46,743 bases of DNA from Microcaldota archaeon (GCA_021803425.1 JAJZLN010000014.1:1-46743); one strand, 5' to 3'; counted from the first letter of the stretch, positions 8,805 to 29,110 are shown. A program made the numbers and translations. Notes: generated from the letters alone by a model not told the origin.

Positions 8805-9191
8805 ATGGCATTGATGGAAAAAATAAGCAGGTATTATTTCATTGTAATGGCGCTTATAGGCGTATCGATATTCTTCGGCCAGGTGGCTGCCCAGTCCTCT
8901 GCCGTTGCCGTTACAACTTCCACGTTGTGTGGCATAATAGGCGGAGTGCGATCGGTGGTGGGAGTCATAGCGCTTGTGCTTTTCATAGTTGGTGGAGCAC
9001 TTTATGCAGTAGCGCACATGATGCCTGCTGCAGGAAATCTCAGGGGAAACGTTCAGGGATGGTCCTTGGGAATGATAGTTGGAGGGATAGTCGGGCTAAT
9101 AATAGTGCTGATTGCTCCTGCTATAATAGGTGCAATAGCCGGTGTCTCGCTTAGCGGATCCGGATCTATAACAAGTCCAAGCTGCATCTGA
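8805..9191 (+). CDS. VirB2/TrbC-like pilin (signal peptide plus two hydrophobic helices)
   Basis: 128 aa; N-terminal signal-like segment ending QVAAQSS, then TM-short polar loop-TM (VIALVLFIVGGALYAVAHMMPAAGNLRGNVQGWSLGMIVGGIVGLIIVLIAPAIIGAI), the classic VirB2/TrbC architecture. Confidence 0.72.
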   Translation: MALMEKISRYYFIVMALIGVSIFFGQVAAQSSAVAVTTSTLCGIIGGVRSVVGVIALVLFIVGGALYAVAHMMPAAGNLRGNVQGWSLGMIVGGIVGLIIVLIAPAIIGAIAGVSLSGSGSITSPSCI

Positions 9192-9206
9192 TAAATTTCA
9201 TGCGGA

Positions 9207-9228
9207 ATGCAGCATGATTATGCTGCAT
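9207..9228 (+). repeat. Perfect 9-bp inverted repeat (ATGCAGCAT-gatt-ATGCTGCAT), RNA hairpin just after the pilin stop
   Basis: Read directly; 4-nt loop; 15 nt downstream of the TGA at 9189-9191. Confidence 0.85.
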
Positions 9229-9249
9229 CAAAGCTCCTATGGTTAATTA

Positions 9250-26509: not shown

Positions 26510-26519
26510 GGGTGCAATC

Positions 26520-26675
26520 ATGGCTTATTCTGTAAACATAATGAAGAAATATCAGCACGTCAGGGTGTATTCCATAAAGAAAAGCGTGAAGGGGAACCAG
26601 AACGAGATATCCAGGATAATCGAATCATTGATAAACAGGTATCTGCAGAAGAGAGCGGAGAAGCAGGAGGCCTGA
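26520..26675 (+). CDS. Small basic protein (~51 aa)
   Basis: ATG-TGA ORF MAYSVNIMKKYQHVRVYSIKKSVKGNQNEISRIIESLINRYLQKRAEKQEA exactly filling the gap between neighbouring same-strand genes; not in the supplied ORF track. Confidence 0.6.
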   Translation: MAYSVNIMKKYQHVRVYSIKKSVKGNQNEISRIIESLINRYLQKRAEKQEA

Positions 26676-26680
26676 ATTCT

Positions 26681-29110
26681 ATGAAATTTCCAAATATGAC
26701 GCTTAAAAACGTACCGATATCCTATCCTATCTGGAAAAAGAATCATTACATAAAACTTGCAGCAATCGCATTTGCTGTGCTGATAGTCATATTTATCCTT
26801 ATGTCCCTTTACATAAGGAGCGTAATATCAAGCATACCTGTGCCTGTGCCCTCTCCTACTGGCATGATACTTGCAAATTTCTCTGAAGTATCCCAGGGGG
26901 TGCTTACCTTTAATTTCGCATCACAACTTGTAGAGTACGCACGCATACATTATACCGAATCTAATGCAACTTCAATGAACGCTTCAATAACTGTATTCAA
27001 GTCTAATCCGATACTTCCGATATACTTGGTCGATACGCAAAGCTACTGTGAGCAGTGCTTCATACCATCAACGCTATTCGGATACCTGAATTCATCTCTT
27101 TCATCAGATGGATTGGTGCTGAACCGCTCAAGCTTCAGGCTGATAAATATAAATGAGCTTTCATCCGTGCCAAAGGGGGCAATAGTAATAATTGCATCGG
27201 GGCTTATGCCCAATATTCTTCTGCCAGGTGAGACGTATTTTGAGCAGTGCCCGAGATATACAAACGTAACACTGCTTTCTTTGCTATCAGCCGGCGACAC
27301 CGTCTTATATGTTGGCAGGAATCTCTCAACTTCAGTTTCGTGCAGCGGGCAGGTGATATTGACCTCCAACCAGACTCTATCATCACTCGGAGCAATTGCA
27401 GACTGGTCTGCGCCACAAAACACTCTTGGGGTGAACGGCACCACGAATCCGCTGTATCTGAAAAATCAGACTTTCGAATATACTGCTGCACCGGGCTATG
27501 GAACTTCATCATACATATCAATCCTGAATGGCACATTCGTTGTTCTGGGCAACTATCCATCGGCAGGATGGAACGACAGCGCATTTCTTCTCTCATCCGA
27601 CATATCAAAAGTCATACTGTCAAGGTACTGGGCACCTGTGCTGGCATCAGGCGCTATTCCTGCTTCAGCTCCGTCAAATTCCGGGAATTTCACCATCTTT
27701 ACGCTAAACAATGTCCTCCCCAACATTCCAAGTTCCGCAGGCATTATAAATGATTCATACTCGCTGGTTCAGGTGCATATGTCAAACGGACACCGCTATT
27801 CAAACAAGGAAATACTGCTGAAATATAAATTCCTCCAGAATGGCACTCTAAGCATACCTCCAATCGTTGGACAGTCGCAGCAGGTGCAGATAGAATCCCA
27901 GATATCTGATTCCGCAGCCCGCACCATAATAGGCCATATCCAGATCTATAACCAGAACTTCAGCGTTGCGCCGCAAAGCCCGATACCTATAGGGCAAATC
28001 GGCGCATCGATAATAATAACTAGCACATCATTTTTACTTCCTAGCGGATATTACATTGCATCTTTAATCGACCAGAACGGAGTGCAATATTCCTCTGCAT
28101 TGACATACGTCCAGAATTCTACCATTGTGCCTGTAAAAGAGGATTTCAAGAACGCCTCCTTTATTTTTTCGGCAACGAGCAACGCCTCTCAAGTTAACGG
28201 AGTGCAATACCAAATCAACATAAACGGTGCATACAGCGAGAATGGGACTGCGAGCGGCGGAGTAATAAATTATTATCTCCCCAAAGGCACAGCCTTAAGC
28301 TATGGTTCTGGATCATTCAATGTAAGGATGCTCAATGATTCATATTCTATTCCATATTCTTACACTAATCCTGGTATCATAATACCTCCTCTGTACATAG
28401 AGTTTGCCATAGCTGCGATAGTAATTGTGGTGCTTAACAAGGTGCTTGTGCCTTCTTCATCCGATCTTTATTACATAGACGTGCCAGAAATTTCCCATAC
28501 TAAGATGGAGCATGTAAAAGAATCAGCGGAAACAATAATATCCGTATTTAACAAGGTAAATGACTTTTATAAGTGGAGATATGTGCCCCTTACCGCAGAG
28601 GAGATAAAGTCTGGAATCAGCAGCAATGTAAAATACGGAAATTCGCGTGTATTCATAACACTTAGAAATACCCATTCAATACTCAATAAGCTTGTAAAGG
28701 ACGGTGTTCTTGTTTCAACAGACGAATACTTTGCGCCAAAAAGTTGGATTTCAGATTCGGGGCATAGCATTGATTTTCTTGTCATATACAGGAAGATTAG
28801 GGATTTCTGCATAGCAAACGGAATGATGTCAACCGAGATGGACACTGCGACAAAGTGGGATATGGTGGTCACGAGAAAAGGCACGCAGAAATACATAAAG
28901 ATATATTCTGAAAATTTCAAGATAAGGGATATAGAGATAAACAAGAACATAAGGACGTTTGTGGTTTTCCTGAATGAAGACAACAGGCTTGATTTCATGG
29001 ACAAGCTGAGGAAGTCTCATGGCAAGAACGCCGAGATACTCAAGCTTGCGATAAAGTATGGTAATGTAAAGCTCACAGATTCTGAGAATCTGGATGTGCT
29101 CAGCATCTGA
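26681..29110 (+). CDS. Large bitopic/two-TM protein: big extracytoplasmic domain and cytoplasmic C-terminal domain
   Basis: TM near residue 30, Ser/Asn-rich ectodomain, TM at IEFAIAAIVIVVLNKVLV, charged cytoplasmic tail of ~230 aa. Confidence 0.75.
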   Translation: MKFPNMTLKNVPISYPIWKKNHYIKLAAIAFAVLIVIFILMSLYIRSVISSIPVPVPSPTGMILANFSEVSQGVLTFNFASQLVEYARIHYTESNATSMNASITVFKSNPILPIYLVDTQSYCEQCFIPSTLFGYLNSSLSSDGLVLNRSSFRLININELSSVPKGAIVIIASGLMPNILLPGETYFEQCPRYTNVTLLSLLSAGDTVLYVGRNLSTSVSCSGQVILTSNQTLSSLGAIADWSAPQNTLGVNGTTNPLYLKNQTFEYTAAPGYGTSSYISILNGTFVVLGNYPSAGWNDSAFLLSSDISKVILSRYWAPVLASGAIPASAPSNSGNFTIFTLNNVLPNIPSSAGIINDSYSLVQVHMSNGHRYSNKEILLKYKFLQNGTLSIPPIVGQSQQVQIESQISDSAARTIIGHIQIYNQNFSVAPQSPIPIGQIGASIIITSTSFLLPSGYYIASLIDQNGVQYSSALTYVQNSTIVPVKEDFKNASFIFSATSNASQVNGVQYQININGAYSENGTASGGVINYYLPKGTALSYGSGSFNVRMLNDSYSIPYSYTNPGIIIPPLYIEFAIAAIVIVVLNKVLVPSSSDLYYIDVPEISHTKMEHVKESAETIISVFNKVNDFYKWRYVPLTAEEIKSGISSNVKYGNSRVFITLRNTHSILNKLVKDGVLVSTDEYFAPKSWISDSGHSIDFLVIYRKIRDFCIANGMMSTEMDTATKWDMVVTRKGTQKYIKIYSENFKIRDIEINKNIRTFVVFLNEDNRLDFMDKLRKSHGKNAEILKLAIKYGNVKLTDSENLDVLSI

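What the first reader, a model, noticed from the sequence alone, without database searches (positions are those of the whole stretch)
8805..29110. Type IV secretion/DNA-transfer-like machine with unusual composition
A ~20 kb same-strand locus combines a VirB2/TrbC-like pilin, six VirB6-like membrane proteins, two VirB3/VirB4-N-like proteins, a VirB4/TraC-type motor ATPase and at least six uncharacterised partners. Sequence shows the ATPase motifs and TM architectures directly. Established knowledge: VirB2+VirB6+VirB4-type sets define conjugative T4SS and the archaeal Ced/Ted DNA-import systems (CedA/CedA1/CedB). Inference: this is a divergent chromosomal version for DNA or protein exchange, perhaps relevant to a small-genome archaeon dependent on other cells.
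Basis: partly seen in the sequence, partly recalled or inferred. Interest (0 to 1): 0.92.

Follow-up and report, generated by a model that had tools for sequence, protein, structure and literature searches.

The report
Archaeal conjugation-type machine with six-part channel
Tiny host-dependent archaea (Micrarchaeota) carry, as a core chromosomal locus, a relative of the machines that pass DNA or proteins between cells, and its membrane channel is encoded by exactly six different sister genes in fixed order, which suggests a ring built from six dedicated subunits, something I found no report of for any such machine.

Summary
The locus (8805-29110, Ca. Micrarchaeota) encodes a VirB2/TrbC-type pilin, six paralogous CedA-like polytopic proteins, two membrane-anchored proteins folded like the N-terminal domain of VirB4, a VirB4/CedD/TraC-type motor lacking that domain, and conserved partners. 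N273 homologues occur in 257 of 303 genomes of the phylum; gene order is conserved in 19 of 20 Micrarchaeales loci.

New findings. (1) All 59 complete six-gene clusters examined hold exactly six CedA-like genes. In nine near-complete genomes copies occur only as clusters of six (11) or singletons (7). Each position is its own orthologous group (four of six fully resolved phylum-wide). Other orders carry two such clusters, positions matching, as if duplicated as a block. (2) The same genome has a compact version (pilin, one CedA-like, one VirB4-N-like, motor, coiled coil), found in 20 of 20 other genomes examined. (3) No relaxase (PF03432) or VirD4-type coupling protein (PF02534) in 21 genomes; no viral relatives.

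Best reading: a vertically inherited Ced/T4SS-type transfer machine whose channel is probably a hetero-oligomer, perhaps a heterohexamer. Substrate and direction are unproven. Direct similarity to bacterial VirB6 was not detected; the link runs through CedA.

The parts
8805..9191 (+). VirB2/TrbC/CedA1-type pilin (128 aa)
   Evidence: PF04956 in 10 of 16 orthologues, best 9.7e-8; PF18895 T4SS_pilin in 5 of 16; first gene of the conserved locus
9250..11106 (+). m618 polytopic membrane protein; accessory, largely missing in the second family of the order
11147..11884 (+). m245 polytopic membrane protein, conserved in the locus, function unknown
11948..13249 (+). CedA-like channel paralogue, position 1 (B6a)
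   Evidence: hhalign with all other B6; separate clade within the order
13246..14475 (+). CedA-like channel paralogue, position 2 (B6b); overlaps its neighbours by 4 bases
14472..16127 (+). CedA-like channel paralogue, position 3 (B6c)
16135..17304 (+). CedA-like channel paralogue, position 4 (B6d); direct CedA HMM match at 16819-17088
   Evidence: NF041796 E=1.9e-6
17301..18398 (+). CedA-like channel paralogue, position 5 (B6e)
18403..19530 (+). CedA-like channel paralogue, position 6 (B6f)
   Evidence: AF2 pLDDT 85.9, no significant PDB fold match
19626..21737 (+). x703, basic helical protein, only in part of the family
21840..22682 (+). N280, membrane-anchored VirB4-N-like protein, paralogue of N273
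   Evidence: hhalign 97.9% to N273
22690..23511 (+). N273, two predicted TM helices plus VirB4 N-terminal-like domain, no ATPase
   Evidence: AF2 pLDDT 80.0; top six PDB matches are R388 TrwK/VirB4, best 7o42_E prob 1.00, E=7.7e-3; the CedB HMM runs across the N273-motor boundary
23518..25029 (+). VirB4/CedD/TraC-type motor ATPase without N-terminal domain
   Evidence: CedD 2.2e-19, TraC 2.7e-17, CedB 4.4e-17, HerA 7.3e-15; relatives in all genomes searched; conserved start and Walker A
25032..25328 (+). x98, free copy of the motor's C-terminal domain
   Evidence: hhalign 97.4% to motor residues 422-503
25321..25695 (+). zf124, putative zinc-finger membrane protein
   Evidence: C-x2-C motifs in the sequence; conserved in the locus
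25721..26509 (+). cc262, coiled-coil protein with C-terminal winged-helix-like end
   Evidence: conserved; counterpart in the compact system
26681..29110 (+). x809, large predicted extracellular domain, TM, cytoplasmic domain; conserved across orders
   Evidence: no nuclease motif

Best explanation
A vertically inherited, chromosomal transfer machine of the Ced/Ted/T4SS kind. Shown by comparison: VirB2-type pilin, CedA-like channel proteins, VirB4 split into a motor and two membrane-anchored N-domain-like proteins, and a fixed set of six channel paralogues. Inferred: the motor forms the usual hexamer under the membrane, N273 and N280 anchor it (perhaps replacing the central and outer VirB4 N-domains of R388), and the six channel paralogues co-assemble, most simply one copy each in a pseudo-sixfold ring, as MCM2-7 does relative to homohexameric MCM. 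The pilin is built on this platform and bridges to another cell. The compact system would be the same machine with one channel gene, a homo-oligomer. Substrate (inferred, about 0.45 for DNA): chromosomal DNA moved between cells, as in Ced. Sub-confidences: T4SS/Ced-type machine 0.9; six paralogues in one complex 0.6; hexameric ring 0.45.
For: Motor closest to CedD/TraC/CedB; compact motor closest to CedB. N273 fold matches VirB4. CedA is the top NCBIfam family over 78 channel sequences, best 1.2e-5; the CedA HMM gives 15 hits in 14 of 61 relatives, 14 of them at the channel genes of this locus, and among 14 control genomes only in Sulfolobus acidocaldarius (positions compared). Pilin families. 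Exactly six channel genes in 59 of 59 complete clusters and in all 11 clusters of nine near-complete genomes. Six positional clades within the order, SH-aLRT 99-100; positions 2, 4, 5, 6 one clade each phylum-wide. Two clusters of six in other orders with matching positions. Compact system in 20 of 20 further genomes.
Against: No transport, pilus or complex has been observed. The B6f model has no significant PDB fold match, and a profile of eight bacterial VirB6 proteins shows no similarity above reversed controls. Known VirB6 and DotA rings are pentamers (PMC12857230), so six could be five plus one or something else. In other orders the six-gene clusters are not next to the motor. No VirD4-type coupling protein, so the route of substrate choice is unknown. 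Positions 1 and 3 of Micrarchaeales are not resolved as orthologous to positions 1 and 3 of other orders.
Confidence: 0.6

Rival explanations
1. The same machine, but it moves proteins or other host-directed cargo and serves life on the host, as proposed for the T4SS of Patescibacteria.
For: Host-dependent small-genome lineage, vertical core gene set, no relaxase (PF03432) or VirD4-type protein (PF02534). Patescibacteria show the same pattern: chromosomal, relaxase-free, separate VirB4-N protein (TrsD), several components essential for epibiotic growth (PMC12102498).
Against: Motors are closest to DNA-translocating CedD and CedB; no effector was sought or found; the named archaeal relatives Ced and Ted are DNA-transfer systems (PMC9905601, PMC11868833).
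Confidence: 0.35
2. The six paralogues do not co-assemble: they are alternative channels or take different roles (channel, pilus platform, receptor).
For: They have diverged to the point that many pairs are found only by profiles; some carry very large inserts.
Against: The number is always six, never 2-5 or more, across the clusters examined; the second cluster of other orders also keeps all six; several genes overlap by 4 bases.
Confidence: 0.3
3. A pilus or adhesion device without macromolecule transfer.
For: Pilin present; pili-like links between small ARMAN-like and larger Thermoplasmatales cells are reported (cited in PMC5498576).
Against: Pilus assembly alone does not explain a six-member channel family kept in all genomes examined.
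Confidence: 0.12
4. An integrated conjugative element or plasmid remnant.
For: T4SS genes are typical of such elements (established knowledge).
Against: Conserved order across the taxonomic order, no relaxase, no relatives in viral contigs.
Confidence: 0.03
5. A HerA-type DNA repair helicase with unrelated membrane proteins.
For: DUF87/HerA Pfam match 1.5e-14; HerA chains head the PDB sequence list.
Against: CedD, TraC and CedB profiles score better; the ORF starts about 65 residues before Walker A with a conserved Met, leaving no room for a HAS barrel; a separate HerA-like protein exists in the genome.
Confidence: 0.02

Closest known systems
Ced system (Sulfolobales, Desulfurococcales, Acidilobales)
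   Same: CedA-like channel family, VirB2-type pilin (CedA1), CedB/CedD-type motors, chromosomal
   Different: Ced has one CedA plus a paralogue CedE (PMC11868833); here six channel paralogues, the VirB4 N-domain on separate proteins, and extra conserved partners
Ted system (Thermoproteales)
   Same: pilin, CedA/VirB6-like channel and VirB4-like ATPase encoded near each other
   Different: single channel gene and VirB4-like ATPase in one piece (PMC9905601)
T4SS of Patescibacteria (MPF-FATA type)
   Same: ultrasmall host-dependent cells, chromosomal, relaxase mostly absent, VirB2-like pilins, separate VirB4-N protein TrsD
   Different: VirB4 of the bacterial MPF-FATA lineage; VirB6 detected in few genomes; no six-fold paralogue set described (PMC12102498)
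Rickettsiales T4SS
   Same: tandem VirB6 paralogues in one operon with virB3 and virB4
   Different: four or five paralogues depending on family, unrelated lineage (PMC7648143)
R388 Trw T4SS
   Same: N273 model matches TrwK/VirB4; hexameric motor logic
   Different: VirB6 is a pentamer; no detectable profile similarity to the channel paralogues

Membership tests
Type IV secretion system superfamily | VirB4-type motor ATPase | tested here: met
   CedD/TraC/CedB profiles above HerA; the VirB4 N-domain is absent from the motor itself
Type IV secretion system superfamily | VirB4 N-terminal domain | tested here: met
   on a separate protein: N273 top six PDB fold matches are VirB4/TrwK; E-values 0.008-0.14, so supported by rank and probability rather than by E alone
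Type IV secretion system superfamily | VirB6 polytopic channel protein (bacterial) | tested here: inconclusive
   no fold match, no profile match to eight bacterial VirB6; linked only through CedA and the published TedA-VirB6 relation (PMC9905601)
Type IV secretion system superfamily | VirB2-type pilin | tested here: met
   PF04956 and PF18895 matches across orthologues, below the gathering score for the window protein
Type IV secretion system superfamily | VirB3 | not tested
   two-helix N-termini of N273/N280 are suggestive only
Conjugation system | relaxase | tested here: not met
   PF03432 absent in 21 genomes; other relaxase families not searched
Conjugation system | VirD4-type coupling protein | tested here: not met
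   PF02534 absent in 21 genomes, control positive in S. acidocaldarius; TcpA type not searched; a 700-800 aa VirB4-like ATPase lies near the compact locus in most genomes
Ced system | CedA | tested here: inconclusive
   HMM match specific to the locus but far below the curated cut-off of 330 bits (26 bits): a distant homologue, not CedA itself
Ced system | CedB and CedD over their curated cut-offs | tested here: not met
   61.9 bits against a cut-off of 700 for CedB and 69.6 against 600 for CedD
Ced system | DNA import activity | not testable with these tools
   needs an experiment
HerA-NurA | N-terminal HAS barrel on the ATPase | tested here: not met
   conserved start about 65 residues before Walker A

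The most novel reading that the evidence does not exclude
A T4SS-type channel that has become an obligate heterohexamer: six CedA-like paralogues, each occupying one fixed place around a hexameric motor, with the VirB4 polypeptide broken into a motor and two dedicated scaffold proteins. It is an old, core device of almost a whole phylum of host-dependent archaea, and in several other orders the six-part channel set was duplicated as a block.
Probability: 0.4. Interest if true: 0.93.

Novelty: new variant of a known kind. Interest (0 to 1): 0.85.

Why it matters
How DPANN archaea exchange material with their hosts is an open question. This is a near-universal candidate machine in Micrarchaeota, present in the cultivated Ca. 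Micrarchaeum strain A_DKE (locus L114), and I found no description of it in the papers searched. The strict rule of six channel paralogues bears on an open structural question, how a channel platform (a pentamer where solved) meets a hexameric VirB4 motor, and the split VirB4 may help explain why VirB4 occurs as a hexamer of dimers. It also adds an archaeal parallel to the T4SS of Patescibacteria, the other large group of ultrasmall epibionts.

Tried and rejected
Direct link to bacterial VirB6 by profile comparison: no signal above reversed controls. Fold search of B6f in the PDB: nothing significant. Sequence search of the PDB with channel, N-domain and pilin profiles: nothing. Viral relatives of the motor: none by this scan. 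Nuclease domain in the x809 C-terminus: suspected from sequence, not supported by conservation. Link with the upstream type II/IV-pilus-like genes (3255-8614): adjacent only in close relatives, so not treated as part of the system. A small motor tree with plasmid ATPases and HerA was limited: R388 TrwK, TrwB, the 740-aa ATPases and pNOB8_6801 were not aligned by the trimming profile and dropped out, and long branches met, so it decides nothing about VirB4 versus HerA.

Full report
ORGANISM AND LOCUS. The window is contig C6 of an 880,901-base, 93% complete assembly. Named relatives are Candidatus Micrarchaeota, including the complete genome of Ca. Micrarchaeum sp. A_DKE (L114). The reported genes are intact and on one strand. 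Order: pilin, m618, m245, six polytopic proteins (B6a-f), x703, N280, N273, motor (ATP), x98, zf124, cc262, x809.

CONSERVATION. Matches to the motor were found in 61 of 61 genomes searched; full-length matches are mostly 59-80% identical, and a few genomes gave only weaker matches to other ATPases of the superfamily. In 20 loci of 16-20 kb from the order, 19 show the same order with all or nearly all core genes in the covered part; in G048 the parts are dispersed. A further 80 named loci repeat the pattern where contigs are long enough. N273 is found in 257 of 303 genomes of the phylum. A motor scan of viral contigs found nothing.

IDENTITY OF PARTS. Motor: best NCBIfam matches CedD 2.2e-19, TraC 2.7e-17, CedB 4.4e-17, ahead of HerA 7.3e-15; all are far below equivalog cut-offs, so it is a distant member. 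It begins about 65 residues before Walker A with a conserved Met, so it lacks both a HAS barrel and a VirB4 N-domain. N273: AF2 model, pLDDT 80.0; the six best PDB matches among 350,542 chains are all R388 VirB4/TrwK (7o42_E probability 1.00, E 7.7e-3). The E-values are modest, but six of six top ranks from one family is hard to get by chance. The CedB HMM runs across the N273-motor boundary, through the intervening stop codon. N280 is a paralogue of N273, and x98 repeats the motor's C-terminal domain. The pilin matches TrbC/VirB2 in 10 of 16 orthologues and T4SS_pilin in 5.

CHANNEL FAMILY. All six polytopic proteins are mutually homologous (96.5-99.4%). Over 78 members, CedA is the top NCBIfam family, with three members, best 1.2e-5. 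A genome-wide CedA search gave 15 hits in 14 of 61 genomes; by position 14 of the 15 fall in the channel genes of this locus, one (G010:C18) is unassigned, and among 14 control genomes only S. acidocaldarius rings. The link to CedA is therefore specific though distant. The link to bacterial VirB6 was not reproduced: no profile signal and no fold match. It rests on published TedA-VirB6 homology (PMC9905601).

THE RULE OF SIX. I counted channel genes in every complete cluster at hand: 56 of 59 score exactly six automatically. The other three resolve to six by inspection: L125 has six ORFs with one over-extended start; in L242 one gene is split by a frameshift; L064 has split genes. The regions from other orders had been picked because they had several hits, so I ran a census on nine near-complete genomes: all hits fall into 11 clusters of six plus 7 singletons, apart from one 124-aa fragment in G063. 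No other cluster size appeared. Within the order each of the six positions is one clade with SH-aLRT 99-100, and the compact-system channel protein is a seventh. Across orders (126 sequences) positions 2, 4, 5 and 6 are each one clade (97-99); positions 1 and 3 each need two changes because the Micrarchaeales members are unresolved. Genomes of other orders have two six-gene clusters, here called X and Y, both represented at every position, as expected if the set was duplicated as a block. These trees are quick searches without bootstrap.

THE COMPACT SISTER SYSTEM. On contig C19 of the same genome: pilin-like 121 aa, one channel protein 341 aa, one N-like protein 239 aa, motor 370 aa, coiled-coil protein 244 aa, in the same order. 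It is found in all 20 further genomes examined, some with a gene missed, split or cut. Its channel protein matches every position profile at 99.7-99.9%; its motor is closest to CedB. A 700-800 aa VirB4-like ATPase follows in most genomes. In the distant family f25 (L234) a main-type motor sits beside a single channel gene, suggesting a single-gene ancestral state or a reduction; this is an inference from one genome.

MECHANISM. Shown: components, conservation, number, order, paralogy. Inferred: motor hexamer, scaffold role of N273/N280, channel hetero-oligomer, pilus, cargo. Known VirB6 and DotA rings are pentamers and VirB4 is a hexamer of dimers (PMC12857230), so a heterohexameric channel would be a real departure; five plus one is also possible. 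A relaxase (PF03432) and a VirD4-type protein (PF02534) were not found in 21 genomes, as in most Patescibacteria systems for the relaxase (PMC12102498). Cargo is undecided: motor affinity favours DNA, lifestyle favours host-directed exchange.

LITERATURE. Searches found no description of a T4SS in Micrarchaeota. A 2025 Micrarchaeota genome paper does not mention secretion, VirB, T4SS, pili or conjugation (PMC12892359), and the A_DKE culture paper has no mention of secretion, VirB or pili (PMC8975820). The Mia14 paper discusses type IV pili and putative conjugative islands, not this system (PMC5498576). Subscription papers and preprints were not searchable, so a prior report elsewhere is possible. 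Tandem VirB6 paralogues are known in Rickettsiales, four or five per operon (PMC7648143), and Ced has CedA plus CedE (PMC11868833).

Noticed in passing
G000 contig C19 (L175:4383-8680, minus strand): Compact sister system: pilin-like, one CedA-like, one VirB4-N-like, motor, coiled-coil protein; found in 20 of 20 further genomes examined.
   Followed up: yes
window 3255-8614, minus strand: Divergent T2SSE ATPase, two FlaJ/TadC-like membrane proteins, a 205-aa protein and a coiled-coil protein (type IV pilus-like assembly genes) beside the locus; adjacency seen only in close relatives.
   Followed up: partly
L202, L205, L207, L195 and others, downstream of the compact locus: A 700-800 aa VirB4/CedD-like ATPase with a long N-terminal part, possibly a coupling-type or second motor.
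   Followed up: partly
G158:C37:2710-5757: The motor gene seems interrupted in frame by about 500 aa near the Walker B motif, as an intein would do (1067-aa open frame).
   Followed up: no
other orders, Y clusters (L236, L240, L246, L248, L250, L252): The third channel gene carries a very large insert (ORFs of 660-1143 aa), and in several a giant ORF (800-1640 aa) follows the cluster.
   Followed up: no
G048 contig C1: Channel cluster, N280/N273 and motor lie 20-80 kb apart; its single compact-type channel gene has two in-frame stops, possibly decaying.
   Followed up: partly
window 155-3232: Two adjacent ORFs with LamG-like repeats, perhaps one frameshifted surface protein; such proteins are linked to host contact in Mia14 (PMC5498576).
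   Followed up: no
L127:943-2574 (G000:C24): HerA-like ATPase with what looks like a PD-(D/E)xK nuclease-type C-terminus.
   Followed up: no
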